DNA from: Zeus faber
Lineage: Eukaryota > Chordata > Actinopteri > Zeiformes > Zeidae
Length of the DNA stretch: 64,000 nt
Reading direction: 5' to 3'
Assembly: GCA_960531495.1 (NCBI GenBank)
Contig: OY482846.1
Span: 13,585,986-13,649,985, forward strand
Made by a program: the position numbers and the translations under genes. Shown here piece after piece: positions 21,143 through 56,555 of the stretch (positions within the stretch are counted from its first letter, which is position 1; each line of letters begins with the position of its first letter). Under the pieces are notes generated by a model that was given only the letters and a program-made list of their open reading frames with translations, was not told the origin of the DNA and ran no database searches.

Positions 21143-21290
<148 letters not shown>

Positions 21291-30152: not shown

Positions 30153-34364
<4,212 letters not shown>

Positions 34365-35392: not shown

Positions 35393-35644
35393 GTCGGGTG
35401 CAGTGGTGTGCGCCTGTTATCCAAGTCACTGGGAGGCTGAAGCTGGAGAGCCCTTTGAGCTTGGGTGTACTGTGCCGATCTGGTGTCCGAGCTAAGTTCA
35501 CTGTCGATATGGTGTTCCTGGAGGACCCCCCGGACCACCAGGTTGTCTAAGGAGGACTGCACCGGCCCCGGTCAGAAATGTTCTCAGTAAAGGGATCGCG
35601 TCCGGTAAGAGAAGCTGTAGTGCAGCCTGAGCAGGACTCAGTCT
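35393..35644 (+). pseudogene. 7SL copy 1, degenerate edge relic
   Basis: Recognisable from GTCGGGTGCAGTGG through CCGATCTGGTGTCCGAGCTA to GACTCAGTCTTCC. It has a roughly 45-nt deletion in the SRP54-binding helix 8 region, no T4 terminator and no upstream CRE-like site. It is the left boundary of the array. Confidence 0.85.
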
Positions 35645-36168
35645 TCCAAACACTCAATTTCTTTGTTGAATGTAGTCATTTGCCAATGAGTATATTGATA
35701 TTTCTATGATGCATTAAACTTCTGCAGCACGTGGTTGTCCATTTATTGTTATTTTAAATGTTCTTAGGCCAGTACTGATTGCTGATCCGATAGTGCCTCC
35801 TACTGCCAGAGAATGGTGGAAAAAAAGGTATACCCTGTAGTTCGTCACATGACCAGTTGGTGGTGCTAGTTGGCCATCGACGAATGTGAAAAATATACTA
35901 AAATGTATTTATTCATGTGCCGGCTACATCCTGTTGTCAAAAACAGATGTGATAAGATACTGTAGTTGGTAAGCTCAGTTAATGGTTTACAAAGTTGCAT
36001 ATTTACTACATGAATTCTTTCAGAGTTTGAAGCGCAGTTGGGTCAACCAACAAAAGCCAACACACTCCTGTCTAATTTAACCGCACAACAGTAAGTTTGT
36101 ATTTCTTCACCTGACCTTTTGATTAGGTCCCCAGATTGCACCACCAATAGGTAAATGGTTTAACCTGA

Positions 36169-36217
36169 TGATGTCATGAATGAGTAGACAAGAGCCCTTT
36201 AAGTTCCCTTTTCTCTC
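36169..36217 (+). promoter_or_regulatory. 7SL upstream promoter (representative of all units)
   Basis: TGATGTCA sits at -49 to -42 relative to the 7SL 5' end, and a TATA-like CCTTTAAGTT at about -23 to -14. Mammalian 7SL genes need an ATF/CREB site at about -51 to -43 together with internal Pol III elements, so spacing and motif agree. The same block recurs before copies 3-15 and 17. Confidence 0.8.
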
Positions 36218-36515
36218 GCCGGGTGCAGTGGCGTGTGCCTGTAATCCAAGTTCCTGGGAGGCTGAGACTGGTGGATGGTTTGAGCTCGGGAGTTCTGAGC
36301 TGCAGTGTTCTGTGTCGATCGGGTGTCCGCGCTAAGCTCGGTATCAACATGGTGTTTCTGGGGGATCCCGGGACCTCCAGGTTGTCTAAGGAGGGGTGCA
36401 CTGGCCAAGGTCGGAAACGGAGCAGGTTAAAGCCCCTGTGCCGCTCAGTAGCGGGATCGCACCTGTGAATAGATGCTGTAGTGCAGCCTTAGTAACACAG
36501 CAGGACCCAGTCTTT
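36218..36515 (+). ncRNA. rn7sl: 7SL/SRP RNA gene, copy 2
   Basis: RNA scaffold of the signal recognition particle, which pauses translation of secretory proteins and targets ribosomes to the ER. The sequence follows vertebrate 7SL end to end. It starts with the Alu domain GCCGGGTGCAGTGGCG with the loop TGTAAT. The S domain follows: GATCGGGTGTCCGCGCTAAG, then GGTTGTCTAAGGAGGGGTG, then helix 8 GGTCGGAAACGGAGCAGG with the GGAA tetraloop at 36413-36416, then CAGTAGCGGGATCGCACC. It closes with a return strand ending GACCCAGTC. TTTT at 36513-36516 is the Pol III stop. Length about 298 nt against about 300 in human. This copy has CCCCTGTG where most have CCCCCGTG. Confidence 0.95.
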
Positions 36516-37095
36516 TATCGCACTCTCATTTTCAATGTCATTGTTGTTTGTAGTCATTTGCCAATGAGTATATTGATATTTCTATGATGCATTAAACTTC
36601 TGCAGCACGTGGTTGTCCATTTATTGTTATTTTAAATGTTCTTAGGCCAGTACTGATTGCTGATCCGATAGTGCCTCCTACTGCCAGAGAATGGTGCAAA
36701 AAAAGGTATACCCTGTAGTTCGTCACATGACCAGTTGGTGGTGCAAGTTGGCCATCGACGAATGTGAAAAATATACTAAAATGTATTTATTCATGTGCCG
36801 GCTACATCCTGTTGTCAAAAACAGATGTGATAAGATACTGTAGTTGGTAAGCTCAGTTAATGGTTTACAAAGTTGCATATTTACTACATGAATTCTTTCA
36901 GAGTTTGAAGCGCGGTTGGGTCAACCAACAAAAGCCAACACACTCCTGTCTAATTTAACCGCACAACAGTAAGTTTGTATTTCTTCACCTGACCTTTTGA
37001 TTAGGTCCCCAGATTGCACCACCAATAGGTAAATGGTTTAACCTGATGATGTCATGAATGAGTAGACAAGAGCCCTTTAAGTTCCCTTTTCTCTC

Positions 37096-37393
37096 GCCGG
37101 GTGCAGTGGCGTGTGCCTGTAATCCAAGTTCCTGGGAGGCTGAGACTGGTGGATGGTTTGAGCTCGGGAGTTCTGAGCTGCAGTGTTCTGTGTCGATCGG
37201 GTGTCCGCGCTAAGCTCGGTATCAACATGGTGTTTCTGGGGGATCCCGGGACCTCCAGGTTGTCTAAGGAGGGGTGGACGGGCCCAGGCCGGAAACGGAG
37301 CAGGTTAAAGTCCCCGTGCCGCTCAGTAGCGGGATCGCACCTGTGAATAGATGCTGTAGTGCACCCTTAGTAACACAGCAGGACCCAGTCTTT
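37096..37393 (+). ncRNA. rn7sl: 7SL/SRP RNA gene, copy 3
   Basis: Full length, with CRE-like site, TATA-like box and T4 terminator. Diagnostic variants: GGACGGGCCCAGGCCGG, AAGTCCCCGTG and GCACCCTTAG. The first two are shared with copy 7, one higher-order period later. Confidence 0.94.
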
Positions 37394-37973
37394 TATTGCA
37401 CTCTCATTTTCAATATCATTGTTGTTTGTAGTCATTTGCCAATGAGTATATTGATATTTCTATGATGCATTAAACTTCTGCAGCACGTGGTTGTCCATTT
37501 ATTGTTATTTTAAATGTTCTTAGGCCAGTACTGATTGCTGATCCGATAGTGCCTCCTACTGCCAGAGAATGGTGGAAAAAAAGGTATACCCTGTAGTTCG
37601 TCACATGACCAGTTGGTGGTGCAAGTTGGCCATCGACGAATGTGAAAAATATACTAAAATGTATTTATTCATGTGCCGGCTACATCCTGTTGTCAAAAAC
37701 AGATGTGATAAGATACTGTAGTTGGTAAGCTCAGTTAATGGTTTACAAAGTTGCATATTTACTACATGAATTCTTTCAGAGTTTGAAGCGCGGTTGGGTC
37801 ATCCAACAAAAGCCAACACACTCCTGTCTAATTTAACCGCACAACAGTAAGTTTGTATTTCTTCACCTGACCTTTTGATTAGGTCCCCAGATTGCACCAC
37901 CAATAGGGAAATGGTTTAACGTGATGATGTCATGAATGAGTAGACAAGAGCCCTTTAAGTTCCCTTTTCTCTC

Positions 37974-38271
37974 GCCGGGTGCAGTGGCGTGTGCCTGTAA
38001 TCCAAGTTCCTGTGAGGCTGAGACTGGTGGATGGTTTGAGCTCGGGAGTTCTGAGCTGCAGTGTTCTGTGTCGATCGGGTGTCCGCGCTAAGCTCGGTAT
38101 CAACATGGTGTTTCTGGGGGATCCCGGCACCTCCAGGTTGTCTAAGGAGGGGTGGACGGGCCCAGGTCGGAAACGGAGCAGGTTAAAGTCCCCGTGCCGC
38201 TCAGTAGCGGGATCGCACCTGTGAATAGAAGCTGTAGTGCAGCCTTAGTAACACAGCAGGACCCAGTCTTT
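37974..38271 (+). ncRNA. rn7sl: 7SL/SRP RNA gene, copy 4
   Basis: Full length with intact promoter and T4. Variants CCTGTGAGGCTG, CCCGGCACCTCC and GAATAGAAGCTG are shared with copy 8. Its promoter reads GTTTAACGTGATGATGTCA instead of AACCTGATG, leaving the CRE-like core unchanged. Confidence 0.94.
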
Positions 38272-38851
38272 TATTGCACTCTCATTTTCAATATCATTGT
38301 TGTTCGTAGTCATTTGCCAATGAGTATATTGATATTTCTATGATGCATTAAACTTCTGCAGCACGTGGTTGTCCATTTATTGTTATTTTAAATGTTCTTA
38401 GGCCAGTACTGATTGCTGATCCGATAGTGCCTCCTACTGCCAGAGAATGGTGGAAAAAAATGTATACCCTGTAGTTCGTCACATGACCAGTTGGTGGTGC
38501 CAGTTGGCCATCGACGAATGTGAAAAATATACTAAAATGTATTTATTCATGTGCCGGCTACATCCTGTTGTCAAAAACAGATGTGATAAGATACTGTAGT
38601 TGGTAAGCTCAGCTAATGGTTTACAAAGTTGCATATTTACTACATGAATTCTTTCAGAGTTTGAAGCGCAGTTGGGTCAACCAACAAAAGCCAACACACT
38701 CCTGTCTAATTTAACCGCACAACAGTAAGTTTGTATTTCTTCACCTGACCTTTTGATTAGGTCCCCAGATTGCACCACCAATAGGTAAATGGTTTAACCT
38801 GATGATGTCATGAATGAGTAGACAAGAGCCCTTTAAGTTCCCTTTTCTCTC

Positions 38852-39149
38852 GCCGGGTGCAGTGGCGTGTGCCTGTAATCCAAGTTCCTGGGAGGCTGAG
38901 ACTGGAGGATGGTTTGAGCTCGGGAGTTCTGAGCTGCAGTGTTCTGTGTCGATCGGGTGTCCGCGCTAAGCTCGGTATCAACATGGTGTTTCTGGGGGAT
39001 CCCGGGACCTCCAGGTTGTCTAAGGAGGGGTGGACGGGCCCAGGTCGGAAACGGAGCAGGTTAAAGCCCCCGTGCCGCTCAGTAGCGGGATCGCACCTGT
39101 GAATAGATGCTGTAGTGCAGCCTTAGTAACACAGCAGGACCCAGTCTTT
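38852..39149 (+). ncRNA. rn7sl: 7SL/SRP RNA gene, copy 5
   Basis: Full length with promoter and T4. The variant GAGACTGGAGGATGG combined with GGACGGGCCCAGG is shared with copy 9. Confidence 0.94.
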
Positions 39150-39729
39150 TATCGCACTCTCATTTTCAATGTCATTGTTGTTTGTAGTCATTTGCCAATG
39201 AATATATTGATATTTCTATGATGCATTAAACTTCTGCAGCACGTGGTTGTCCATTTATTGTTATTTTAAATGTTCTTAGGCCAGTACTGATTGCTGATCC
39301 GATAGTGCCTCCTACTGCCAGAGAATGGTGGAAAAAAAGGTATACCCTGTAGTTCGTCACATGACCAGTTGGTGGTGCAAGTTGGCCATCGACGAATGTG
39401 AAAAATATACTAAAATGTATTTATTCATGTGCCGGCTACATCCTGTTGTCAAAAACAGATGTGATAAGATACTGTAGTTGGTAAGCTCAGTTAATGGTTT
39501 ACAAAGTTGCATATTTACTACATGAATTCTTTCAGAGTTTGAAGCGCGGTTGGGTCAACCAACAAAAGCCAACACACTCCTGTCTAATTTAACCGCACAA
39601 CAGTAAGTTTGTATTTCTTCACCTGACCTTTTGATTAGGTCCCCAGATTGCACCACCAATAGGTAAATGGTTTAACCTGATGATGTCATGAATGAGTAGA
39701 CAAGAGCCCTTTAAGTTCCCTTTTCTCTC

Positions 39730-40027
39730 GCCGGGTGCAGTGGCGTGTGCCTGTAATCCAAGTTCCTGGGAGGCTGAGACTGGTGGATGGTTTGAGCTCG
39801 GGAGTTCTGAGCTGCAGTCTTCTGTGTCGATCGGGTGTCCGCGCTAAGCTCGGTATCAACATGGTGTTTCTGGGGGATCCCGGGACCTCCAGGTTGTCTA
39901 AGGAGGGGTGCACTGGCCAAGGTCGGAAACGGAGCAGGTTAAAGCCCCCGTGCCGCTCAGTAGCGGGATCGCACCTGTGAATAGATGCTGTAGTGCAGCC
40001 TTAGTAACACAGCAGGACCCAGTCTTT
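39730..40027 (+). ncRNA. rn7sl: 7SL/SRP RNA gene, copy 6
   Basis: Full length with promoter and T4. It has GCACTGGCCAAGG like copy 2, and a private change CTGCAGTCTTCTG in the central region. It starts the second four-unit block. Confidence 0.94.
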
Positions 40028-40607
40028 TATCGCACTCTCATTTTCAATGTCATTGTTGTTTGTAGTCATTTGCCAATGAATATATTGATATTTCTATGAT
40101 GCATTAAACTTCTGCAGCACGTGGTTGTCCATTTATTGTTATTTTAAATGTTCTTAGGCCAGTACTGATTGCTGATCCGATAGTGCCTCCTACTGCCAGA
40201 GAATGGTGGAAAAAAAGGTATACCCTGTAGTTCGTCACATGACCAGTTGGTGGTGCAAGTTGGCCATCGACGAATGTGAAAAATATACTAAAATGTATTT
40301 ATTCATGTGCCGGCTACATCCTGTTGTCAAAAACAGATGTGATAAGATACTGTAGTTGGTAAGCTCAGTTAATGGTTTACAAAGTTGCATATTTACTACA
40401 TGAATTCTTTCAGAGTTTGAAGCGCGGTTGGGTCAACCAACAAAAGCCAACACACTCCTGTCTAATTTAACCGCACAACAGTAAGTTTGTATTTCTTCAC
40501 CTGACCTTTTGATTAGGTCCCCAGATTGCACCACCAATAGGTAAATGGTTTAACCTGATGATGTCATGAATGAGTAGACAAGAGCCCTTTAAGTTCCCTT
40601 TTCTCTC

Positions 40608-40905
40608 GCCGGGTGCAGTGGCGTGTGCCTGTAATCCAAGTTCCTGGGAGGCTGAGACTGGTGGATGGTTTGAGCTCGGGAGTTCTGAGCTGCAGTGTTC
40701 TGTGTCGATCGGGTGTCCGCGCTAAGCTCGGTATCAACATGGTGTTTCTGGGGGATCCCGGGACCTCCAGGTTGTCTAAGGAGGGGTGGACGGGCCCAGG
40801 CCGGAAACGGAGCAGGTTAAAGTCCCCGTGCCGCTCAGTAGCGGGATCGCACCTGTGAATAGATGCTGTAGTGCAGCCTTAGTAACACAGCAGGACCCAG
40901 TCTTT
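40608..40905 (+). ncRNA. rn7sl: 7SL/SRP RNA gene, copy 7
   Basis: Full length with promoter and T4. It shares CCCAGGCCGG and AAGTCCCCGTG with copy 3. Confidence 0.94.
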
Positions 40906-41485
40906 TATTGCACTCTCATTTTCAATATCATTGTTGTTTGTAGTCATTTGCCAATGAGTATATTGATATTTCTATGATGCATTAAACTTCTGCAGCACGT
41001 GGTTGTCCATTTATTGTTATTTTAAATGTTCTTAGGCCAGTACTGATTGCTGATCCGATAGTGCCTCCTACTGCCAGAGAATGGTGGAAAAAAAGGTATA
41101 CCCTGTAGTTCGTCACATGACCAGTTGGTGGTGCAAGTTGGCCATCGACGAATGTGAAAAATATACTAAAATGTATTTATTCATGTGCCGGCTACATCCT
41201 GTTGTCAAAAACAGATGTGATAAGATACTGTAGTTGGTAAGCTCAGTTAATGGTTTACAAAGTTGCATATTTACTACATGAATTCTTTCAGAGTTTGAAG
41301 CGCGGTTGGGTCATCCAACAAAAGCCAACACACTCCTGTCTAATTTAACCGCACAACAGTAAGTTTGTATTTCTTCACCTGACCTTTTGATTAGGTCCCC
41401 AGATTGCACCACCAATAGGGAAATGGTTTAACCTGATGATGTCATGAATGAGTAGACAAGAGCCCTTTAAGTTCCCTTTTCTCTC

Positions 41486-41783
41486 GCCGGGTGCAGTGGC
41501 GTGTGCCTGTAATCCAAGTTCCTGTGAGGCTGAGACTGGTGGATGGTTTGAGCTCGGGAGTTCTGAGCTGCAGTGTTCTGTGTCGATCGGGTGTCCGCGC
41601 TAAGCTCGGTATCAACATGGTGTTTCTGGGGGATCCCGGCACCTCCAGGTTGTCTAAGGAGGGGTGGACGGGCCCAGGTCGGAAACGGAGCAGGTTAAAG
41701 TCCCCGTGCCGCTCAGTAGCGGGATCGCACCTGTGAATAGAAGCTGTAGTGCAGCCTTAGTAACACAGCAGGACCCAGTCTTT
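41486..41783 (+). ncRNA. rn7sl: 7SL/SRP RNA gene, copy 8
   Basis: Full length with promoter and T4. It carries the copy-4 signature (CCTGTGAGGCTG, CCCGGCACC, GAATAGAAGCTG) and the same TTGTTCGTAG change in the spacer. Confidence 0.94.
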
Positions 41784-42363
41784 TATTGCACTCTCATTTT
41801 CAATATCATTGTTGTTCGTAGTCATTTGCCAATGAGTATATTGATATTTCTATGATGCATTAAACTTCTGCAGCACGTGGTTGTCCATTTATTGTTATTT
41901 TAAATGTTCTTAGGCCAGTACTGATTGCTGATCCGATAGTGCCTCCTACTGCCAGAGAATGGTGGAAAAAAATGTATACCCTGTAGTTCGTCACATGACC
42001 AGTTGGTGGTGCCAGTTGGCCATCGACGAATGTGAAAAATATACTAAAATGTATTTATTCATGTGCCGGCTACATCCTGTTGTCAAAAACAGATGTGATA
42101 AGATACTGTAGTTGGTAAGCTCAGTTAATGGTTTACAAAGTTGCATATTTACTACATGAATTCTTTCAGAGTTTGAAGCGCAGTTGGGTCAACCAACAAA
42201 AGCCAACACACTCCTGTCTAATTTAACCGCACAACAGTAAGTTTGTATTTCTTCACCTGACCTTTTGATTAGGTCCCCAGATTGCACCACCAATAGGTAA
42301 ATGGTTTAACCTGATGATGTCATGAATGAGTAGACAAGAGCCCTTTAAGTTCCCTTTTCTCTC

Positions 42364-42661
42364 GCCGGGTGCAGTGGCGTGTGCCTGTAATCCAAGTTCC
42401 TGGGAGGCTGAGACTGGAGGATGGTTTGAGCTCGGGAGTTCTGAGCTGCAGTGTTCTGTGTCGATCGGGTGTCCGTGCTAAGCTCGGTATCAACATGGTG
42501 TTTCTGGGGGATCCCGGGACCTCCAGGTTGTCTAAGGAGGGGTGGACGGGCCCAGGTCGGAAACGGAGCAGGTTAAAGCCCCCGTGCCGCTCAGTAGCGG
42601 GATCGCACCTGTGAATAGATGCTGTAGTGCAGCCTTAGTAACACAGCAGGACCCAGTCTTT
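42364..42661 (+). ncRNA. rn7sl: 7SL/SRP RNA gene, copy 9
   Basis: Full length with promoter and T4. It has the copy-5 signature plus a private GTCCGTGCTAAG where the others have GTCCGCGCTAAG. Confidence 0.94.
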
Positions 42662-43241
42662 TATCGCACTCTCATTTTCAATGTCATTGTTGTTTGTAGT
42701 CATTTGCCAATGAATATATTGATATTTCTATGATGCATTAAACTTCTGCAGCACGTGGTTGTCCATTTATTGTTATTTTAAATGTTCTTAGGCCAGTACT
42801 GATTGCTGATCCGATAGTGCCTCCTACTGCCAGAGAATGGTGCAAAAAAAGGTATACCCTGTAGTTCGTCACATGACCAGTTGGTGGTGCAAGTTGGCCA
42901 TCGACGAATGTGAAAAATATACTAAAATGTATTTATTCATGTGCCGGCTACATCCTGTTGTCAAAAACAGATGTGATAAGATACTGTAGTTGGTAAGCTC
43001 AGTTAATGGTTTACAAAGTTGCATATTTACTACATGAATTCTTTCAGAGTTTGAAGCGCGGTTGGGTCAACCAACAAAAGCCAACACACTCCTGTCTAAT
43101 TTAACCGCACAACAGTAAGTTTGTATTTCTTCACCTGACCTTTTGATTAGGTCCCCAGATTGCACCACCAATAGGTAAATGGTTTAACCTGATGATGTCA
43201 TGAATGAGTAGACAAGAGCCCTTTAAGTTCCCTTTTCTCTC

Positions 43242-43539
43242 GCCGGGTGCAGTGGCGTGTGCCTGTAATCCAAGTTCCTGGGAGGCTGAGACTGGTGGAT
43301 GGTTTGAGCTCGGGAGTTCTGAGCTGCAGTGTTCTGTGTCGATCGGGTGTCCGCGCTAAGCTCGGTATCAACATGGTGTTTCTGGGGGATCCCGGGACCT
43401 CCAGGTTGTCTAAGGAGGGGTGCACTGGCCAAGGTCGGAAACGGAGCAGGTTAAAGCCCCCGTGCCGCTCAGTAGCGGGATCGCACCTGTGAATAGATGC
43501 TGTAGTGCAGCCTTAGTAACACAGCAGGACCCAGTCTTT
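43242..43539 (+). ncRNA. rn7sl: 7SL/SRP RNA gene, copy 10
   Basis: Full length with promoter and T4. Close to the array consensus, with GCACTGGCCAAGG and CCCCCGTG. Confidence 0.94.
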
Positions 43540-44119
43540 TATCGCACTCTCATTTTCAATGTCATTGTTGTTTGTAGTCATTTGCCAATGAATATATTGA
43601 TATTTCTATGATGCATTAAACTTCTGCAGCACGTGGTTGTCCATTTATTGTTATTTTAAATGTTCTTAGGCCAGTACTGATTGCTGATCCGATAGTGCCT
43701 CCTACTGCCAGAGAATGGTGGAAAAAAAGGTATACCCTGTAGTTCGTCACATGACCAGTTGGTGGTGCAAGTTGGCCATCGACGAATGTGAAAAATATAC
43801 TAAAATGTATTTATTCATGTGCCGGCTACATCCTGTTGTCAAAAACAGATGTGATAAGATACTGTAGTTGGTAAGCTCAGTTAATGGTTTACAAAGTTGC
43901 ATATTTACTACATGAATTCTTTCAGAGTTTGAAGCGCGGTTGGGTCAACCAACAAAAGCCAACACACTCCTGTCTAATTTAACCGCACAACAGTAAGTTT
44001 GTATTTCTTCACCTGACCTTTTGATTAGGTCCCCAGATTGCACCACCAATAGGTAAATGGTTTAACCTGATGATGTCATGAATGAGTAGACAAGAGCCCT
44101 TTAAGTTCCCTTTTCTCTC

Positions 44120-44417
44120 GCCGGGTGCAGTGGCGTGTGCCTGTAATCCAAGTTCCTGGGAGGCTGAGACTGGTGGATGGTTTGAGCTCGGGAGTTCTGA
44201 GCTGCAGTGTTCTGTGTCGATCGGGTGTCCGCGCTAAGCTCGGTATCAACATGGTGTTTCTGGGGGATCCCGGGACCTCCAGGTTGTCTAAGGAGGGGTG
44301 CACTGGCCAAGGTCGGAAACGGAGCAGGTTAAAGCCCCCGTGCCGCTCAGTAGCGGGATCGCACCTGTGAATAGAAGCTGTAGTGCAGCCTTAGTAACAC
44401 AGCAGGACCCAGTCTTT
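44120..44417 (+). ncRNA. rn7sl: 7SL/SRP RNA gene, copy 11
   Basis: Full length with promoter and T4. It combines GCACTGGCCAAGG (as in copies 2, 6 and 10) with GAATAGAAGCTG (as in copies 4 and 8), a mosaic suggesting unequal crossover or gene conversion. Confidence 0.94.
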
Positions 44418-44997
44418 TATTGCACTCTCATTTTCAATATCATTGTTGTTTGTAGTCATTTGCCAATGAGTATATTGATATTTCTATGATGCATTAAACT
44501 TCTGCAGCACGTGGTTGTCCATTTATTGTTATTTTAAATGTTCTTAGGCCAGTACTGATTGCTGATCCGATAGTGCCTCCTACTGCCAGAGAATGGTGGA
44601 AAAAAAGGTATACCCTGTAGTGCGTCACATGACCAGTTGGTGGTGCCAGTTGGCCATCGACGAATGTGAAAAATATACTAAAATGTATTTATTCATGTGC
44701 CGGCTACATCCTGTTGTCAAAAACAGATGTGATAAGATACTGTAGTTGGTAAGCTCAGTTAATGGTTTACAAAGTTGCATATTTACTACATGAATTCTTT
44801 CAGAGTTTGAAGCGCAGTTGGGTCAACCAACAAAAGCCAACACACTCCTGTCTAATTTAACCGCACAACAGTAAGTTTGTATTTCTTCACCTGACCTTTT
44901 GATTAGGTCCCCAGATTGCACCACCAATAGGTAAATGGTTTAACCTGATGATGTCATGAATGAGTAGACAAGAGCCCTTTAAGTTCCCTTTTCTCTC

Positions 44998-45295
44998 GCC
45001 GGGTGCAGTGGCATGTGCCTGTAATCCAAGTTCCTGGGAGGCTGAGACTGGTGGATGGTTTGAGCTCGGGAGTTCTGAGCTGCAGTGTTCTGTGTCGATC
45101 GGGTGTCCGAGCTAAGCTCGCTATCAACATGGTGTTTCTGGGGGATCCCGGGACCTCCAGGTTGTCTAAGGAGGGGTGGATGGGCCCAGGTCGGAAACGG
45201 AGCAGGTTAAAGTCCCCGTGCCGCTCAGTAGCGGGATCGCACCTGTGAATAGATGCTGTAGTGCAGCCTTAGTAACACAGCAGGACCCAGTCTTT
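44998..45295 (+). ncRNA. rn7sl: 7SL/SRP RNA gene, copy 12
   Basis: Full length with promoter and T4. Private changes: GCAGTGGCATGTG in the Alu domain, GTCCGAGCTAAGCTCGCTATC in the central helix and GGATGGGCCCAGG. Confidence 0.93.
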
Positions 45296-45875
45296 TATTG
45301 CACTCTCATTTTCAATGTCATTGTTGTTTGTAGACATTTGCCAATGAGTAAATTGATATTTCTATGATGCATTAAACTTCTGCAGCACGTGGTTGTCCAT
45401 TTATTGTTATTTTAAATGTTCTTAGGCCAGTACTGATTGCTGATCCGATAGTGCCTCCTACTGCCAGAGAATGGTGGAAAAAAATGTATACCCTGTAGTT
45501 CGTCACATGACCAGTTGGTGGTGCTAGTTGGCCATCGACGAATGTGAAAAATATACTAAAATGTATTTATTTATGTGCCGGCTACATCCTGTTGTCAAAA
45601 ACAGATGTGATAAGATACTGTAGTTGGTAAGCTCAGTTAATGGTTTACAAAGTTGCATATTTACTACATGAATTCTTTCAGAGTTTGAAGCGCGGTTGGG
45701 TCAACCAACAAAAGCCAACACACTCCTGTCTAATTTAACCGCACAACAGTAAGTTTGTATTTCTTCACCTGACCTTTTGATTAGGTCCCCAGATTGCACC
45801 ACCAATAGGTAAATGGTTTAACCTGATGATGTCATGAATGAGTAGACAAGAGCCCTTTAAGTTCCCTTTTCTCTC

Positions 45876-46173: not shown

Positions 46174-46550
46174 TATTGCACTCTCATTTTCAATGTCATT
46201 GTTGTTTGTAGTCATTTGCCAATGAGTATATTGATATTTCTATGATGCATTAAACTTCTGCAGCACGTGGTTGTCCATTTATTGTTATTTTAAATGTTCT
46301 TAGGCCAGTACTGATTGCTGATCCGATAGTGCCTCCTGCTGCCAGAGAATGGTGGAAAAAAAGGTATACCCTGTAGTTTGTCACATGACCAGTTGGTGGT
46401 GCAAGTTGGCCATCGACGAATGTGAAAAATATACTAAAATGTATTTATTCATGTGCCGGCTACATCCTGTTGTCAAAAACAGATGTGATAAGATACTGTA
46501 GTTGGTAAGCTCAGTTAATGGTTTACAAAGTTGCATATTTACTACATGAA

Positions 46551-49500
46551 TATAGTATAGCGATAGTGGCGCCGCCCCTAGCGGTCGCCTGCGCCGGCGC
46601 TCCGGTTACTTTCTTACTCTTTAGTATTTTTTTCCTTTTTTTATCACAATGTTCGCCAGGAAAACATCAACAATTAACTCATACGGCCGCGATGCACTCA
46701 TGGATATAAAAATTTCCCTAAACGAACAACTTTGGGACTTTTTATCCGTGGAGCAGAGTGGCCGGCGGAAATCCTACGCGGGAACACTCGCAACAACAAC
46801 AAAAATGGAGTCGCTGTTCCACGAGCCGGCCCACGGAGGAAGCACCGAGGTAAACGAGGCAGCATTCGGGTCAGAATGAGGACGCAACCTTACCGTCCAC
46901 CTCTGCCAAGCATCCTTCTTGCTAACGTCCAGTCCCTGGAGAACAAGATGGATGAACTTCGAGCGAGGATTCAATTCCAGCGTGACACGAGGAACTGTTG
47001 CGTCCTCTGCCTGACGGAAACATGGCTGACCCCACTGGTGCCGGATGAAGCCATACGTCCAGCCGAGGCCTTCTCCGTGTTCCGCGGCGACAGAACGGGA
47101 GAGTCGGGGAAATCCAAAGGTGGAGGCGTCTGCCTAATGGTAAACAACCACTGGTGTAACGCCAACAACACCAAATTCCTCTCCCACTCCTGCTCGCCGA
47201 ACCTGGAACAGCTGACCATACTATGCCGTCCATTTTATCTCCCCCGGGAATTCAGCACGGTCATCATTACAGCCGTTTATATCCCACCGCAAGCGGACAC
47301 CGACGCAGCACTGTCGGTTCTGCACGATGTGTTGTGCGGATTTCAGAACAGACATCCCGACGCGGCTGTGGTGGTGACTGGGGACTTTAACAGGGCCAAC
47401 CTGAAAAAAGTTCTGCCGAATTTCCACCAACACATCACGTGTGCCACCAGGGGAGACAGAACTCTGGACCATTGTTACACTCCTTACAAGAACGGATACA
47501 AGCCCGTGTCGCTTCCTGCTTTCGGGAAATCAGATCACGCCGCGATCTCGCTGCTTCCTGTTTACAGGCCTCTGATCGCGCGGGATCTGGTGATGACGAG
47601 GGAAGTGAAGCGGTGGACGGACCAATCAGAGGCTGCGCTTCAGGACGCTCTGACTGACGTAGACTGGGACGTGTTCCAAGCGAGTTCAAGTGACGTCAGC
47701 GAGTTTACGGAGGTTGTAGTGAGTTTTGTGGCTACGTACGCGGATGAAATCGTTCCCACGGTGAAAGTTTGGATATTTCCAAACCAGAAACCATGGGTTG
47801 ATAAATCCATCCGCTGCGCTCTGAATGCGCGCACGGCCGCTTACAACGACGGTCTTGTATCTGGCAACATGGACAAGTACAAAGCGGCGTCGTACAATCT
47901 GCGGAGGGCGGTGAGGGACGCCAAACGGACGTACAGAGACACCGTGGAGCTGCAAATGGAGCGGGGGGACACAAGACGCTTGTGGGAGGGGCTGCGAACA
48001 ATAACAAACTACAAGAGCAGCTCCTCCCCAGCCACGAGTGTGGACGCCTCCCTGGCCAACCAACTGAACTCCTTTTATGCGCGGTTCGAGTCTGGCAGCA
48101 GCACCGCTAGCTCGCCGGCTAATTGGAGCTACACCGCTGGGGACGAGCGCGCACTCTCAGTGTCCGTGCACGAGGTCAGGAGGGCTTTGATGCGGGTGAA
48201 CACCAGGAAAGCTGCGGGCCCAGATGGCATATCTGGGCGAGTACTGAAGACCTGTGCTAACCAGCTAGCTCCGGTGTTCACCACAATATTCAACATCTCC
48301 CTGGCTGAATCAGTGGTCCCATCCTGTTTCAAGAGGTCCACCGTCGTTCCTGTCCCGAAGATCGCCTCTCCAACCTGCCTGAATGACTACCGTCCGGTGG
48401 CCCTCGCCTCGGTGGTCATGAAGTGTTTCGAGAGGCTGATTAAGGATTACATCTGCGCCTCCCTCCCCCGCACCTTGGACCCGTTGCAGTTCGCGTACCG
48501 GCAGAACAGATCCACGGATGACGCGGTCTCCCAGGTACTGCACACCACGCTCACGCACCTGGATGGCCAGAAGGGGGCCTATGTGAGAATGCTGTTCATT
48601 GATTATAGTTCAGCTTTCAACACCATAGTTCCCACCAGACTGGCTGTCAAGCTGTTGGAGCTAGGATTGAATGCTCCGCTGTGCACCTGGATCCTGGACT
48701 TCCTCACAGGCCGCCCCCAGGTGGTCAAGGTGGGGAAGTACATGTCAAGCTCCCTCACCCTGAATACAGGATCCCCCCAGGGCTGCGTCCTCAGCCCCCT
48801 ACTGTACTCCCTGTACACACATGACTGTGTGGCCAGGTCCAGCTCCAACACCATCATCAAGTTTGCTGACGACACCGTGGTCGTGGGCCTGATCACCGAC
48901 TGCGATGAGAAGGCCTACCGCGAGGAGGTGGCTGACCTGTCACTCTGGTGCCAGGACAACAGCCTCCACCTGAACGTCAGCAAAACCAAGGAGCTGATTG
49001 TGGACTTTAGGCGTGGATCACAATCGAGGACGCACGCGCCCTTGTGGATTAATGGGACTTCTGTCGATAGGGTGAGCAGCTTCAGATATCTGGGAGTCCA
49101 CATCACAGAGGACTTAACATGGACTGTTCATACAGACACTCTGGTGAGAAAGGCGAGGCAGCGTCTCTACCACCTCAGGCAGCTGAGGAAATTCCGGGTC
49201 TCGGTGAGGATCCTCAAGTCCTTCTACTCTGGAGCAGTGGAGAGCATCCTGACAGGCAACATCACTGCCTGGTTTGGGAACTGTACTGCCCAGGACAGGC
49301 GGGCCCTGCAGAGGGTGGTGCGTTCAGCTGAACGTACCACTGGAACTACCCTCCCCCCCTTGCAGGAGTTATACACCAGGAGGTGTAGTAGCAGAGCCCG
49401 TAGGATCATGAAGGATCCTCATCACCCCAACAACGGACTGTTTCAGCTGCTGCGGTCAGGCAAGCGCCTCCGCAGTCACGCAGCGAGAACAGAGAGACTG

Positions 49501-50081
49501 AGACGGAGTTTCTTCCCTCAAGCCATCAGAACTGTCAACGCTGACCTCACCAGGGGTCCTAACTGAGCCATGCACTAGGCTCCACTACCTACTGTACTGT
49601 ATGTAGCATACTGTACCGCATACTGTATCACTGTTCAGGGTTGTTCGTGATGCCGTATTGCTGCGCCGTACTGTTGTATACTGTGCTGTATTATCCCAAA
49701 CACTACCTCACACTATTCACATTCACATTCCACTTTAATTCACATGCCACTTTAAATGCACATATCTGTATATACATAGCCATATTCCTTCAACCTATTC
49801 CATTTTATTTCAATTTATTTTTTATTGTATTTTATTCTATATATTTTTTATCTTATTCTATAAGTATTCCACTTACTGTATTACGTTTTAGGAGTCAGTT
49901 AGTCGGTCTATTAGAAAGGAATTTTCTACTTTTTATTTTATTTTATTTTTGTACTTTTTCCTAGGACTTATTGTGTGCTATCACCGGGTGCGTTTCATTA
50001 CATTTCACTGCATATATGTATGGAAGTATGTATATGTATGTGACAAATAAAAATCTTGAATCTTGAATCTTGAATCTTGAA
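46551..50081 (+). mobile_element. Nearly full-length L2/CR1-type non-LTR retrotransposon
   Basis: Exactly 3531 bp of extra sequence splits the spacer of one 7SL unit. Spacer sequence CATGAA|TTCTTTCAG is interrupted and resumes, with a possible TGAA duplication. The 5' end is GC-rich (GCGATAGTGGCGCCGCC). A single long frame follows. The 3' end has AAATAAAAATCTTGAATC and a short tandem tail of about four TCTTGAA heptamers instead of poly-A, as in L2/CR1-clade LINEs. The clade call (L2 rather than Rex1 or a relative) is from memory of motif style and tail. Confidence 0.93.
46649..49566 (+). pseudogene. LINE ORF: endonuclease plus reverse transcriptase, one frameshift
   Basis: Encodes the retrotransposition protein. 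The apparent start MFARKTSTINSYGRDAL at 46649 is one frame off from the long 944-codon frame that ends at 49566. Compared with the second copy (CCATGGGAGCAG), this copy reads CCGTGGAGCAG near 46747, one base short, so the frame is broken there. The rest is open. An apurinic-type endonuclease (about 46920-47550) has NVQSLENK, LTETWL, VTGDFN and a terminal SDHAA. The reverse transcriptase (about 48190-48960) has RKAAGPDGISG, FIDYSSAFNT, GSPQGCVLSP and the catalytic FADD (near 48860). No separate ORF1 with zinc knuckles is seen. Confidence 0.92.
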
Positions 50082-50284: not shown

Positions 50285-50582
50285 GCCGGGTGCAGTGGCG
50301 TGTGCCTGTAATCCAAGTCCCTGGGAGGCTGAGACTGGAGGATGGTTTGAGCTCGGGAGTTCTGAGCTGCAGTGTTCTGTGTCGATCGGGTGTCCGCGCT
50401 AAGCTCGTTATCAACATGGTGTTTCTGGGGGATCCCGGGACCTCCAGGTTGTCTAAGGAGGGGTGCACTGGCCAAGGTCGGAAACGGAGCAGGTTAAAGC
50501 CCCCGTGCCGCTCAGTAGCGGGATCGCACCTGTGAATAGATGCTGTAGTGCAGCCTTAGTAACACAGCAGGACCCAGTCTTT
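50285..50582 (+). ncRNA. rn7sl: 7SL/SRP RNA gene, copy 14
   Basis: First 7SL gene after the LINE, full length, with its own CRE-like site, TATA-like box and T4 intact about 200 bp from the insertion. Private changes: CTCTTGCCGGG at the 5' junction, AAGTCCCTGGG, and CTCGTTATC. Confidence 0.93.
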
Positions 50583-51162
50583 TATTGCACTCTCATTTTC
50601 AATGTCATTGTTGTTTGTAGACAATTGCCAATGAGTATATTGATATTTCTATGATGCATTAAACTTCTGCAGCACGTGGTTGTCCATTTATTGTTATTTT
50701 AAATGTTCTTAGGCCAGTACTGATTGCTGATCCGATAGTGCCTCCTACTGCCAGAGAATGGTGGAAAAAAAGGTATACCCTGTAGTTCATCACATGACCA
50801 GTTGGTGGTGCTAGTTGGCCATCGACGAATGTGAAAAATATACTAAAATGTATTTATTCATGTGCCGGCTACATCCTGTTGTCAAAAACAGATGTGATAA
50901 GATACTGTAGTTGGTAAGCTCAGTTAATGGTTTACAAAGTTGCATATTTACTACATGAATTCTTTCAGAGTTTGAAGCGCGGTTGGGTCATCCAACAAAA
51001 GCCAACACACTCCTGTCTAATTTAACCGCACAACAGTAAGTTTGTATTTCTTCACCTGACCTTTTGATTAGGTCCCCAGATTGCACCACCAATAGGTAAA
51101 TGGTTTAACCTGATGATGTCATGAATGAGTAGACAAGAGCCCTTTAAGTTCCCTTTTCTCTC

Positions 51163-51460: not shown

Positions 51461-51696
51461 TATTGCACTCTCATTTTCAATGTCATTGTTGTTTGTAGTC
51501 ATTTGCCAATGAGTATATTGATATTTCTATGATGCATTAAACTTCTGCAGCACGTGGTTGTCCATTTATTGTTATTTTAAATGTTCTTAGGCCAGTACTG
51601 ATTGCTGGTCCGATAGTGCCTCCTACTGGAAGAGAATGGTGACCTGATGATGTCATTAATGAGTAGATAAGAGCCATTTTAGTTCCCTTGCTCCTT

Positions 51697-51994
51697 GCCG
51701 GGTGCAGTGCCGTGTGCCTGTAATCCAAGTCACTGGGAGGCTGAGACTGGTGGATGGTTTGAGCTCGGGAGTTCTGAGCTGCAGTGTTCTGTTTCGATCG
51801 GGTGTCCGCGCTAAGCTCGATATCAATATGGTGTTTCTGGGGGATCCCGGGACCTCCAGGTTGTCTAAGGAGCGTGGTACTGGCCCAGGTCGGAAACGAA
51901 GCAGGTTAAAGCCCCCGTGCCGCTCAGTAGCGATATCGCACCTGTGAATACATGCTGTAGTGCAGCCTTAGTAACACAGCATGACCCAGTCTCT
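51697..51994 (+). pseudogene. 7SL copy 16, probably inactive
   Basis: About full length but with many private changes: GCAGTGCCGTG, GTTTCGATCGGG, GGAGCGTGGTACTGG and GCGATATCGCACC. The terminator reads CAGTCTCTTATTG, so the T4 is lost. The promoter is altered (GATAAGAGCCATTTTAG), though TGATGTCA remains. Confidence 0.8.
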
Positions 51995-52573
51995 TATTGC
52001 ACTCTCATTTTCAATGTCATTGTTGTTTGTAGTCATTTGCCAATGATAATATTGAAATATCTATGATACATTCAACTTCTGCAGCACGTGGTGTCCATTT
52101 ATTCTTATTTAAAATGTTCTTAGGCCAGTACTGATTGCTGGTCCTTTAGTGCCTCCTACTGCCAGAGAATGGTGGAAAAAAAGGTATACCCTGTAGTTCA
52201 TCACATGACCAGTTGGTGGTGCTAGTTGGCCATCGAAGAATGTGAAAAATATACAAAAATGTATTTATTCATGTGCCGGCTACATCCTGTTGTCAAAAAC
52301 AGATGTGATTAGATACTGTAGTTGGTAAGCTCAGTTAATGGTTTACAAAGTTGCATATTTACTACATAAATTCTTTCAGAGTTTGAAGCGCGGTTGGGTC
52401 AACCAACAAAAGCCAACACACTCCTGTCTAATTTAACCGCACAACAGTAAGTTTGTATTTCTCCGCCTGACCTTTTGATTAGGTCCCCAGATGGCACCAC
52501 CAATAGGTAAATGGTTTAACCTGATGATGTCATGAATGAGTAGACAAGAGCCCTTTAAGTTCCCTTTTCTCTC

Positions 52574-52871
52574 GCCGGGTGCAGTGGCGTGTGCCTGTAA
52601 TCCAAGTTCCTGGGAGGCTGAGACTGGAGGATGGTTTGAGCTCGGGAGTTCTGAGCTGCAGTGTTCTGTGTCGATCGGGTGTCCGCGCTAAGCTCGGTAT
52701 CAATATGGTGTTTCTGGGGGATCCCGGGACCTCCAGGTTGCCTAAGGAGGGGTGCACTGGCCAAGGTCGGAAACGGAGCAGGTTAAAGCCCCCGTGCCGC
52801 TCAGTAGCGGGATCGCACCTGTGAATAGATGCTGTAGTGCAGCCTTAGTAACACAGCAGGACCCAGTCTTT
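52574..52871 (+). ncRNA. rn7sl: 7SL/SRP RNA gene, copy 17
   Basis: Full length with promoter and T4. It has CAATATGGTG and GGTTGCCTAAGGAGG, the latter as in human 7SL. The spacer before it is more diverged than in the central array. Confidence 0.92.
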
Positions 52872-53451
52872 TATTGCACTCTCATTTTCAATGTCATTGT
52901 TGTTTGTAGTCATTTGCCAATGAGTATATTGATATTTCTATGATGCATTAAACTTCTGCAGCACGTGGTTGTCCATTTATTGTTATTTTAAATGTTCTTA
53001 GGCCAGTACTGATTGCTGATCCGATAGTGCCTCCTACTGCCAGAGAATGGTGCAAAAAAAGGTATACCCTGTAGTTCGTCACATGACCAGTTAGTGGTGC
53101 TAGTTGGCCATCGACGAATGTGAAAAATATACTAAAATGTATTTATTCATGTGCCGGCTACATCCTGTTGTCAAAAACAGATGTGTAAAGATACTGTAGT
53201 TGGCAAGCTCAGTTAATGGTTTACAAAGTTGCATATTTACTACATGAATTCTTTCAGAGTTTGAAGCGCGGTTGGGTCAACCAACAAAAGCCAACACACT
53301 CCTGTCTAATTTAACCGCACAACAGTAAGTTTGTATTTCTTCACCTGACCTTTTGATTAGGTACCCAGATTGCACCACCAATAGGTAAATGATTTAACCT
53401 GATGATGTCATGAATGAGTAGACAATAGCCCTTTTAGTTCCATTGTCTCTC

Positions 53452-53705
53452 GCTTGGTGCAGTGGCGTGTGCCTGTAATCCAAGTCCCTGGGAGGCTGAG
53501 ACTGGTGGATGGTTTGAGCTCGGGAGTTCTGAGCTGCAGTGTTCTGTGTCGATCGGGTGTCCACGCTAAGCTCGGTATCAATATGGTGTTCCTGGGGGAT
53601 CCCGGGACTGCCAGGTTGTCTAAGGAGGGGTGCACTGGCCCAGCGCGGAAACAGAGCAGGTTAAAGCCCCCGTGCCGCTCAGTAGCGGGATTGCACCTCT
53701 GATAG
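53452..53705 (+). pseudogene. 7SL copy 18, 3' end lost to a LINE insertion
   Basis: Begins GCTTGGTGCAGTGGCG and runs normally to GGGATTGCACCTCTGATAG, where LINE sequence takes over. The last 45 or so bases and the terminator are missing. The 5' flank retains TGATGTCA but the TATA-like box is changed (CCCTTTTAGTT). Confidence 0.88.
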
Positions 53706-55068
53706 GCGATAGTGGCGCCGCCCTTAGCGGTTGCCGGCGCTCCGGTTACTCTTTTACTTTTTAGTATTTTTTTTCCTTTTTTTATCATAATGTACGCCAA
53801 AAAAACATCGAAAGTTACCTCATACGACCGCGATGCACTCATGGTTATAAAATTTTCCCTAAACGAACAACTTTGGGACTTTTTATCCATGGGAGCAGAG
53901 TGGCCGGCGGAAATACTACGCGGGAACACTCTGAACAACAACAACAACAACAAGAATGGAGCCGCTGTTCCACGAGCGGGCCAACGGAGGAAGCACCGAA
54001 GTAAACGAGGCGGCATTCGGGTCAGAATGAGGACGCAACCTTACCGTCCACCTCTGCCAAGCATCCTTCTTGCTAACGTCCAGTCCCTGGAGAACAAGAT
54101 GGATGAACTTTGAGCGAGGATTAAATTCCAGCGAGACACGAGGAACTGTTGCGTCCTCTGCCTGACGGAAACATGGCTGAACCACTGGTGCCGGATGAAG
54201 CCATACGTCCAGCCGAGGCCTTCTCCGTGTTCCGCGGCGACAGAACGGGAGAGTCGGGGAAATCCAAAGGTGGAGGTGTCTGCCTAATGGTAAACAACCG
54301 CTGGTGTAACGCCAACAACACCAAATTCCTCTCCCACTCCTGCTCGCCGAACCTGGAACAGCTGACCATACTATGCCGTCCATTTTATCTCCCCCGGGAA
54401 TTTAGCACGGTCATCATTACAGCCGTTTATATCCCACCGCAAGCAGACACCGACGCAGCTCTGTCGGTTCTGTACGATGTGTTGTGCGGATTTCAGAACA
54501 GACATCCCGACGCGGCTGTGGTGGTGACTGGGGACTTTAACAGGGCCAACCTTAAAAAAGTTCTGCCGAATTTCCACCAACACATCACGTGTGCCACCAG
54601 GGGAGATAGAACTTTGGACCATTGTTACACACCTTACAAGAACGGATACAAGACCATCTCGCTCCCTGCTTTCGGGAAATCAGATCACGCCGCGATCTCG
54701 CTGGTTCCTCTTCACAGGCCTCTGATCGCGCGGGATCTGGTGATGACGAGGGAAGTGAAGCGGTGGACGGACCAATCGGAGGCTGCGCTTCAGGACGCTC
54801 TGACTGACGTAGACTGGGACATGTTCCAAACAAGTTCAAGTGACGTCAGCGAGTTTACGGAGGTTGTAGTAAGTTTTGTGATTAGCTCGCGGATAATATC
54901 GTTCCCACGGTGAAAGTTCAGATATTTCCAAACCAGAAACCATGGGTTGATAAATCCATCCGCTGCGCTCTGAATGCTCGCACGGCCTTTACAACGACGG
55001 TCTTGTATCTGGTAATATGGACAATTACAAAGCGGCGTCGTACAATCTGCGGAGGGCGGTGAGGGACG
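53706..55068 (+). mobile_element. Second copy of the L2/CR1-type LINE, 3' half deleted
   Basis: Begins with the same GCGATAGTGGCGCCGCC 5' end as the copy at 46551 and aligns with it for about 1.36 kb through the endonuclease. It then stops at GTGAGGGACG and returns abruptly to 7SL spacer sequence. Unlike the usual 5' truncation of LINEs, the 5' end is kept and the 3' end is gone, so a later deletion removed the reverse transcriptase together with about 350 bp of spacer. Confidence 0.9.
53790..54913 (+). pseudogene. Broken LINE ORF fragment (endonuclease part)
   Basis: Starts MYAKKTSKVTSYDRDAL and is in frame through QLWDFLSMGAEWPAE, where the first copy is shifted. It hits a stop at 54112 (GAACTTTGAGCG). 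A two-base shortening near 54180 (GGCTGAACCACTGG) shifts the frame, and another break comes near 54885. The endonuclease motifs VTGDFN and SDHAA are still readable. Confidence 0.88.
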
Positions 55069-55255
55069 GACGCAGATGGGTCAACCAACAAAAGCCAACA
55101 CACTCCTGTCTAATTTAACCGCAAACAGTAAGTTTGTATTTCTTCACCTGACCTTTTGATTAAGTCCCCAGATGGCACCACCAATAGGTAAATGATTTAA
55201 ACCAATGATCTCATGAATGATTAGATAGGAGCCCTTTTTATTTCCCCTGTCTCTT

Positions 55256-55480
55256 GCTAGGTGCAGTGGTGTGTGCCTGTAATCAAAGTCCCTGGGAGGC
55301 TGAGGCTTCGTTTGAGCTTCGGAGTTCTGAGCTGCAGCGTTCTGTGTCAATCAGGTGTATGTGCTAAGTTCAACATCATCATGGTGTTCCTAGGGTATCC
55401 AGGGACCACCGGGTCGTCTAAGGAGGGGTGCACCGACCCAGGTCGGCGATGGAGCAGGTTAAAGCCCCTGTGCAGCTGGT
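55256..55480 (+). pseudogene. 7SL copy 19, diverged and 3'-truncated
   Basis: Recognisable from GCTAGGTGCAGTGG through GGTCGTCTAAGGAGGGGTGC and GGAGCAGGTTAAAGCCCCTG, then similarity ends. The upstream CRE-like site has become CAATGATCTCATGAATG. No terminator. Confidence 0.85.
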
Positions 55481-55949
55481 GTACAAATCTGCAGAGCTTT
55501 CTTTCTCTTAATCTACGGGTGATTATAATTTTATCACAATGGTGCCATCCTGTTATAGGCTGTAAGCCTACATCTATAAGCTAACAAATTGATGTGCGTA
55601 TTTCCTGCAAAATGCAACGATCGCCTTGTTGCAATCCACCAACACATTTCATGTGTTTTAAACTTTAAACAATTGTGTTTTAAACAATTCCACTTTCATT
55701 AAGCAAGTATATTCTTGCTGTTAAATAAACGCCTTTTTAAAAACATTTTTTTTTTGTGTTGATGACGCTGTTCAACATTCTCTACAAACACAAGAAAATT
55801 GCAGAGATTGCCCCATTCAGTAGTGTGTGAAGTGCCTATGTGGCAAGTACCCATGTGCCTTTGTTGGTCCCCAAAACACTTGCATTGTGGGAGCTGACTG
55901 AATGAAATGTGAAATCCTGCGGCAGGTCACATTTTTGTTTTATTGTAAC

Positions 55950-56160
55950 AGTTTTCGCACTTGTCCCGCTGTGTTGCTCAGGCTGCACTACAGCATCTAT
56001 TCACAGCTACTGGTCAGGTGACGATCTACAGGGTATATTTTTTTTCTTTTACCATTCTCTTCCAGTAGGAGGCACTATAGCACACGCAATCGGTACTGGC
56101 CTATGAACATTTAAAATAACAAATGGACAACCACGCGCTGCAGATGTTTAATTGTAACAG
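55950..56160 (-). repeat. Inverted fragment of the 7SL unit (3' gene end plus spacer)
   Basis: On the minus strand, CTGTGAATAGATGCTGTAGTG and the following bases up to GGGAC match the 3' end of 7SL (about 55960-56008). The adjoining 56010-56150 matches the unit spacer (GCCAGTACCGATTGCG, AGTGCCTCCTACTGG, CATTTGTTATTTTAAATG). The two pieces are not in the order of an intact unit, showing rearrangement. Confidence 0.75.
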
Positions 56161-56296
56161 TTATTGCACTTATAGGTGTTAAGTTATTACTAATTGGTGT
56201 GTTTAAAACCCTACATAGGCTCCACACCTTTTATCAGCAAAGTTGGGCAGTCAGTATATAATAAGAAAATGTATCATTGATATTTCAATATCTATG

Positions 56297-56332
56297 CTCG
56301 TGCCTGTGAATATATATAGTCACAGGCACGAG
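56297..56332. repeat. Perfect 13-bp inverted repeat at the edge of the inverted 7SL copy
   Basis: CTCGTGCCTGTGA and TCACAGGCACGAG flank the 10-base loop ATATATATAG. The arms correspond to the 7SL segment ATCGCACCTGTGA, so the palindrome marks a head-to-head junction of two 7SL 3' segments. Confidence 0.8.
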
Positions 56333-56555
56333 CCCACCACTGAGGGGCACGGGGGCTTTGACTTGCTTAATTTATGACCTGGGCACCTCTCCTAAAGTGA
56401 CCTGGTGGTCCTGGGATCCATCAGGAACACCATGTTGATACCAAACTTAGCACAGACACATGATTGACACAGAACACGAAAGCTCAGAACTCCTATGATC
56501 CTTCAGCCTCAGCCTCCCAGCGACTTGATTAAAGGCACACGCCACTGCACCTGTC
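56310..56555 (-). pseudogene. 7SL copy 20, inverted and degenerate
   Basis: The reverse complement reads GGTGCAGTGGCGTGTGCC, GGGAGGCTGAGGCTG, GTGCTAAGTTTGGTATCAAC and CCCCCGTGCCCCTCAGTGG, so nearly the whole 7SL is present. It has many substitutions and ends at CTGTGA. It closes the array on the right in opposite orientation. Confidence 0.88.

What the first reader, a model, noticed from the sequence alone, without database searches (positions are those of the whole stretch)
35393..56555. Tandem array of 7SL (SRP RNA) genes in a fish genome
Twenty 7SL copies or fragments are visible. Fifteen are full length with upstream CRE-like site, TATA-like box and T4 terminator, and the unit period is exactly 878 bp over twelve consecutive genes. 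The RNA includes the S domain (GATCGGGTGTCCGC, helix 8 GGTCGGAAACGGAGCAGG), so these are whole SRP RNA genes rather than Alu-like SINEs. Functional 7SL genes in mammals are few and not arranged as a long regular array. A 5S-like tandem organisation for SRP RNA is, to my knowledge, not a standard description for vertebrates.
Basis: partly seen in the sequence, partly recalled or inferred. Interest (0 to 1): 0.92.

Follow-up and report, generated by a model that had tools for sequence, protein, structure and literature searches.

The report
Tandem 7SL (SRP RNA) gene array
A probable fish chromosome carries a regular head-to-tail row of about twenty copies of the gene for the RNA core of the protein-export particle, while a lone, better-conserved copy sits about 290 kb away; it is a real and rather unusual arrangement, but clusters are known in fish and activity is not yet shown.

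Summary
Rfam's Metazoa_SRP model finds 20 copies at 35393-56555. Fifteen are intact (230-254 bits, CRE-like site, T4). Twelve consecutive genes are exactly 878 bp apart; allowing for one LINE insertion the register runs over 14. One more copy is full length without T4, one is cut by a second LINE, three are degenerate.

New here: the window lies in an 803-Mb genome. The spacer was found only at this locus. The best-scoring 7SL gene is not in the array but a singleton 289 kb away (271.7 bits, perfect CRE). The array consensus differs from it at 22 of 299 sites; the singleton keeps the Rfam consensus at 16, the array at 4. Core units show a four-unit higher-order repeat and recombination; edge copies keep more singleton-like bases. 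Best reading: a local tandem expansion of whole Pol III genes, homogenised in the core, weakly constrained per copy. Transcription is inferred, not shown.

Prior art: eight adjacent 7SL genes on miiuy croaker chromosome 12 (PMC11893794), so clustering in teleosts is not new. A regular homogenised array plus conserved singleton did not turn up in my ten paper searches.

The parts
34188..34364 (+). C-terminal coding exon of eif2b2 (eIF2B beta); left neighbour of the array, not part of it
   Evidence: phmmer match to eIF2B beta, query residues 54-111 to the chain's C-terminus, E 3.5e-28; Pfam IF-2B
35393..35648 (+). degenerate 7SL copy at the left edge
   Evidence: RF00017 76.8 bits; array spacer begins right behind it (35654); its -56..-1 matches the array promoter at 30 of 56 (1 of 20000 shuffles)
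36218..46174 (+). twelve intact 7SL genes at an exact 878-bp step (starts 36218, 37096, 37974, 38852, 39730, 40608, 41486, 42364, 43242, 44120, 44998, 45876), each 299 bp with promoter and spacer
   Evidence: RF00017 230.4-252.4 bits; spacing and identities; T4
36169..36177 (+). CRE-like TGATGTCAT at -49..-41 of the first intact gene; the same site precedes all 15 intact genes and 51697 and 53452
36517..37095 (+). 579-bp spacer of the first intact unit (example)
   Evidence: units align without gaps over 878 bp; found nowhere else in the genome search
46552..50077 (+). LINE inserted in the spacer at unit position about 672-676
   Evidence: frame 46678-49566 with RVT_1 E 4.5e-26 and Exo_endo_phos below its cut-off; unit interrupted here
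50285..50583 (+). intact 7SL gene
   Evidence: 245.6 bits
51163..51461 (+). intact 7SL gene
   Evidence: 253.7 bits
51641..51642 (.). junction where about 344 bp of spacer (unit 480-823) are missing, just upstream of the promoter of 51697
   Evidence: junction letters
51697..51995 (+). full-length diverged 7SL copy without terminal T4
   Evidence: 209.7 bits; 93-94% to the others; T-run only at 312
52574..52872 (+). intact 7SL gene, highest score in the window
   Evidence: 254.2 bits
53452..53706 (+). 7SL gene cut by the second LINE near gene position 251-256
   Evidence: the model match runs on into LINE sequence
53702..55068 (+). second LINE copy, 94% identical to the first, 3' part missing
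55256..55524 (+). degenerate 7SL copy with 185 bp of array spacer before it
   Evidence: 84.4 bits; spacer 694-877 at 90%
56263..56555 (-). degenerate inverted 7SL copy at the right edge, with spacer fragment 56009-56152 behind it
   Evidence: 91.5 bits

Best explanation
A tandem array of complete 7SL genes (upstream promoter, transcribed region, terminator, spacer) that grew at one locus from a singleton-like 7SL ancestor. Unequal crossing-over and/or gene conversion expanded and homogenised the core, at least once in a four-unit step, while edge units were left out and decayed. Because a conserved singleton gene lies 289 kb away, single array copies are only weakly constrained. Shown: whole units repeat at one locus, recombine, and have edges unlike the core. 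Inferred, not shown: several array copies are transcribed by Pol III from internal boxes plus the CRE-like site near -49 and add to the SRP RNA pool.
For: 20 model matches, 15 intact; exact 878-bp register; spacer found only here; CRE-like site and T4 in all 15 intact genes, at the place where mammalian 7SL genes have their CRE (PMC7279448 passages); lag-4 pairs differ by 5.0 against 10.4-13.8 at other lags (17 of 100000 permutations; 176 of 20000 if any lag 1-7 may win); 45 of 171 site pairs with four combinations, Rmin 4; array is one clade with 93/95 support and the singleton has near-zero branch length; edge copies singleton-like at diagnostic sites: 16, 11 and 14 of 20; array consensus keeps 99 of 120 pairs against 95.7 +/- 2.1 for random change (P 0.093). 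In miiuy croaker clustered 7SL genes are reported as infection-sensitive in RNA-seq (PMC11893794).
Against: No RNA data. Gene sites vary at least as much as spacer (16 of 299 against 16 of 579, p 0.059; without CpG p 0.29) and pair-breaking variants are not clearly avoided (9 of 24 alleles, expected 11.3, P 0.205). The singleton's surroundings share no spacer with the array and its promoter matches ungapped at only 22 of 56 (234 of 20000 shuffles), so how the founder copy arose, by DNA duplication or retroposition, is open. The promoter of 51697 is no better conserved (47 of 53) than its gene or spacer. The tree bootstrap had not settled.
Confidence: 0.55

Rival explanations
1. The array is a silent, satellite-like block of 7SL pseudogenes; the singleton at C2:13332409-13332707 (-) makes the SRP RNA.
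For: Singleton scores highest in the genome (271.7 bits), has a perfect TGACGTCA at -50 and keeps the Rfam consensus at 16 of 20 polarisable differences (p 0.012); gene no less variable than spacer; 6 of the 22 differences look like CpG decay and CpG falls from 23 to 16.
Against: All 15 intact copies keep promoter site, T4 and scores of 230-254 bits; 12 of the 22 differences keep their base pair and 4 break one.
Confidence: 0.25
2. Two-tier system: the array makes a distinct 7SL type at a particular stage or demand, the singleton is the housekeeping gene.
For: 14 sites fixed in all 16 full-length array copies against the singleton; clustered miiuy croaker genes respond to infection (PMC11893794); maternal and somatic 5S types in fish (recalled; the paper asked for is not held).
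Against: No expression data; the differences can also be drift under weak constraint.
Confidence: 0.15
3. Assembly artefact: false tandem copies.
For: The two four-unit blocks differ at only 9 of 3512 sites, which haplotype duplication could also give.
Against: Units carry their own variants (16 distinct gene sequences among 17 copies compared), LINE insertions, a deletion and degenerate edges.
Confidence: 0.04
4. 7SL-derived SINE or retrocopies.
For: Dispersed 7SL fragments exist in this genome (9 matches outside the window besides the singleton).
Against: Array copies keep the S domain and share promoter and a long spacer; the spacer search found no match at the dispersed loci.
Confidence: 0.01

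Closest known systems
Clustered 7SL-9 to 7SL-16 on miiuy croaker chromosome 12 (PMC11893794; outline, passages and one section read)
   Same: Several adjacent 7SL genes in a teleost, with a separate, most active 7SL gene elsewhere in the genome
   Different: The text read gives no period, spacer, homogenisation or orientation; its most active gene lies on another chromosome (19) beside ADF-1L. Here 20 copies, 878-bp units, and the singleton is on the same chromosome. Whether the two clusters are orthologous was not testable.
Mammalian 7SL genes (PMC7279448, PMC7073466; passages)
   Same: CRE near -50, internal promoter boxes, T-run end, whole 7SL structure
   Different: Three human 7SL loci are listed, no long regular array; array CRE is TGATGTCAT, not TGACGTCA; the TATA-like box is only a candidate by position
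Tandem arrays of other small RNA genes: 5S (PMC10498592), U1 and U2 (PMC7073466)
   Same: Head-to-tail units with spacers; homogenisation as in 5S arrays is recalled
   Different: Different RNA; this array is small, has degenerate edges and a conserved singleton nearby

Membership tests
Metazoan SRP (7SL) RNA gene | Full-length match to the Metazoa_SRP covariance model above the gathering score | tested here: met
   20 of 20 above 70 bits; 15 intact at 230-254
Metazoan SRP (7SL) RNA gene | Internal A/B-box region, upstream CRE, T-run terminator | tested here: met
   GCAGTGG at 8, AGTTCTGAGCT at 74, TGATGTCAT at -49, T4 at 296 in the intact copies; TATA-like box by position only
Metazoan SRP (7SL) RNA gene | Transcribed by Pol III and bound in the SRP | not testable with these tools
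   no RNA or ChIP data
Tandem gene array under concerted evolution | Whole units, spacer included, repeat head to tail | tested here: met
   units align without gaps over 878 bp, 98-100%
Tandem gene array under concerted evolution | Exchange between units | tested here: met
   four-combination test 45 of 171, Rmin 4; lag-4 repeat
Tandem gene array under concerted evolution | Units more alike within a species than between species | not tested
   no second vertebrate genome was at hand
7SL-derived SINE (Alu-like) | Retroposed dispersed copies without the central S domain | tested here: not met
   S domain present; units share promoter and spacer at one locus

The most novel reading that the evidence does not exclude
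A two-tier 7SL system: a conserved singleton for housekeeping and a homogenised array of a distinct 7SL type (14 sites fixed against the singleton) used at a particular stage or demand, such as oogenesis or infection, in the way fish use maternal and somatic 5S rRNA types (the 5S comparison is recalled).
Probability: 0.15. Interest if true: 0.75.

Novelty: new variant of a known kind. Interest (0 to 1): 0.5.

Why it matters
It shows that SRP RNA genes can sit in a 5S-like, homogenised array in a vertebrate genome beside a conserved singleton. Fixed array-versus-singleton differences make it directly testable whether cells use two kinds of SRP RNA, and the contrast between core and edges makes it a compact case for studying how gene arrays grow and decay.

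Tried and rejected
SINE or retrocopy origin of the core: rejected. Purifying selection within the array: looked for and not found. Promoter footprint from the diverged copy 51697: none. Related sequences in viral and prokaryotic contigs: no match to a 7SL core pattern. A MADF/ADF-1L gene beside the singleton, as next to 7SL-23 in miiuy croaker: no Pfam hit in 10 of the 72 listed ORFs of L009. An alignment of the singleton in the wrong orientation gave meaningless 58-61% values; it was redone (the BLAST rows read both strands and stand).

Literature: ten searches showed no title or abstract start on a regular homogenised 7SL tandem array in a vertebrate; the library holds only open-licence papers and the listings were capped at 20-30. 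Seen: outline, passages and one section of PMC11893794; passages only of PMC7279448, PMC4110674, PMC9734144, PMC7245038, PMC10498592, PMC7073466, PMC2770079 and PMC10886601. All others in search listings only.
Full report
OBSERVATION. A covariance-model scan gives 20 Metazoa_SRP matches between 35393 and 56555, all above the gathering score; a laxer scan (E up to 0.01) adds no further SRP match and only sub-threshold microRNA families at simple repeats. Twelve genes start at 36218+878k (k=0..11). The next gene, 50285, is 4409 bp further, 878+3531. The extra is a LINE (reverse transcriptase E 4.5e-26, endonuclease below its cut-off) at 46552-50077 in one spacer, and 51163 follows 878 bp later, so 14 genes share one register. 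Behind 51163 about 344 bp of spacer are missing just before the promoter of 51697, a full-length copy 93-94% identical to the others that has lost its terminal T4. 52574 is intact. 53452 is cut near gene position 251-256 by a second copy of the LINE (94%, 3' part missing), so the last 45 or so bases of its model match are not 7SL. 35393, 55256 and 56263 (-) are degenerate.

ANATOMY. The intact genes have GCAGTGG at 8 and AGTTCTGAGCT at 74 (A- and B-box regions; names after PMC7245038 passages), TGATGTCAT at -49 to -41 and T4 at 296-299. Mammalian 7SL genes have TGACGTCA at -51/-44 and a TATA-like box at -31/-24 (PMC7279448, passages); TAGACAAG at -33 to -26 is a candidate for the latter by position only. 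The eIF2B beta exon ends at 34364, about 1 kb before the array.

GENOME CONTEXT. The window is C2:13585986-13649985 of an 803-Mb assembly in 153 contigs. The RF00017 search scored 26 of 11376 first-look candidates: 20 in the window, one singleton at C2:13332409-13332707 (-) with 271.7 bits, and five weak ones, three of them over the cut-off; its control rang in 5 of 14 genomes, in none over the cut-off. A DNA search with the singleton scored all its 30 candidates and gave 32 matches: 22 in the window (two are small fragments), the singleton itself and 9 elsewhere. A search with the array spacer gave 21 matches, all in the array; the tool warns that such searches skip very common words. The singleton has a perfect TGACGTCA at -50 and T4. 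Its surroundings show no array spacer, and its -56..-1 matches the array's at 22 of 56 without gaps (234 of 20000 shuffles reach this), so the founding event is not resolved.

ARRAY VERSUS SINGLETON. The 15 intact copies match the singleton at 272-280 of 299 positions, 51697 at 268. The consensus differs at 22 sites; 14 sites are fixed in all 16 full-length array copies against the singleton. The Rfam consensus agrees with the singleton at 16 of the 22, with the array at 4, with neither at 2 (16 against 4: p 0.012); it is only a proxy for an outgroup. Of the 22 differences 12 keep their pair, 4 break it, 3 stay non-standard, 3 are unpaired, and 6 look like CpG decay. Pairing is 99 of 120 against 102; random change of the same spectrum gives 95.7 +/- 2.1, P 0.093. 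In the tree the array is one clade (93/95; the bootstrap had not settled) and the singleton has near-zero branch length. With copy 43242 standing for the array, edge copies carry mostly singleton-like letters at diagnostic sites (35393: 16 of 20; 56263: 14 of 20; 55256: 11 of 20), while the LINE-cut 53452 is array-like (12 of 16). The derived array type thus most likely spread inside the array after the edges dropped out.

HOMOGENISATION. Among 11 complete units, lag-4 pairs differ by 5.0 on average against 10.4-13.8 at other lags; 17 of 100000 permutations reach this for lag 4, and 176 of 20000 if any lag from 1 to 7 may be best. Two of the seven lag-4 pairs, at the right end, do not follow it (11 and 14 differences). 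The two four-unit blocks differ at 9 of 3512 sites. 45 of 171 pairs of informative sites show all four combinations, minimum 4 recombination events over 13 units. Two linked helix-8 subtypes (182/185/190) occur: CTA in 6 of 15 intact copies, GGC in 8, mixed CTC in one.

CONSTRAINT. Gene sites vary at least as much as spacer sites (16 of 299 against 16 of 579, p 0.059; without CpG 11 of 266 against 15 of 560, p 0.29; 11 units), and pair-breaking alleles are not clearly avoided (9 of 24, expected 11.3 +/- 2.2, P 0.205). This goes against strong selection on single copies and fits either redundancy or silence; the tools cannot decide.

MECHANISM. Shown: whole units repeat at one locus, recombine, and have edges unlike the core. 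Inferred: unequal crossing-over and gene conversion as the agents; Pol III transcription of some copies; contribution to the SRP pool.

KNOWN. In miiuy croaker 24 7SL genes are reported, eight of them (7SL-9 to -16) adjacent on chromosome 12 and infection-sensitive, and a separate most active gene on chromosome 19; [quoted passage not shown] Clustering in teleosts is thus in print. In humans 7SL has three loci while U1 and U2 can occur in tandem (PMC7073466), as does 5S (PMC10498592). The ten searches showed no paper on a regular homogenised 7SL array in a vertebrate.

LIMITS. Species unknown; fish is plausible from gene content and genome size but untested. No RNA data, no second species. Only the best candidates are scored in genome searches, so dispersed counts are lower bounds.

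Noticed in passing
Own genome: L012 (C1:32.23 Mb), L013 (C13:23.81 Mb), L014 (C22:12.43 Mb), L020 (C3:31.18 Mb), L021 (C15:29.39 Mb), L022 (C14:18.02 Mb), L023 (C1:57.69 Mb): Seven of the nine dispersed 7SL fragments lie in one older repeat family: each shares flanking sequence beyond the 7SL part on at least one side, mostly 74-86% identical. The 7SL part covers at most about positions 1-207. One flank alone gave 40 matches, 40 of 622 candidates scored, so a common repeat seems to have captured a 7SL piece. A 2024 paper knows 7SL-headed SINEs only from primates, rodents and hagfishes and no 7SL-bearing TRIM (PMC10886601, passages).
   Followed up: partly
helix 6 loop, e.g. window 36363-36366, all full-length array copies; L009 singleton: The loop aligned to the Rfam consensus GGAG (SRP19 site, recalled) reads GGAU in the 17 array copies printed and in the singleton, while several dispersed fragments such as L012 have GGAG.
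   Followed up: no
window 7782-8645 (-) and 14590-15255 (+): Two Fos-type leucine-zipper exons in opposite orientation about 6 kb apart (PDB c-Fos matches E 1.8e-8 and 4.5e-9); two fos paralogues side by side.
   Followed up: partly
window 21088-21717 (+): Exon resembling the EMP24/p24 family (E 2e-4, below the curated cut-off); probably tmed10 by recalled sequence.
   Followed up: no
window 37096-46174 and neighbours, gene positions 182/185/190: The GGC subtype (8 of 15 intact copies) loses the helix 8 pair 185-212 that the CTA subtype forms; a marker for expression tests.
   Followed up: no
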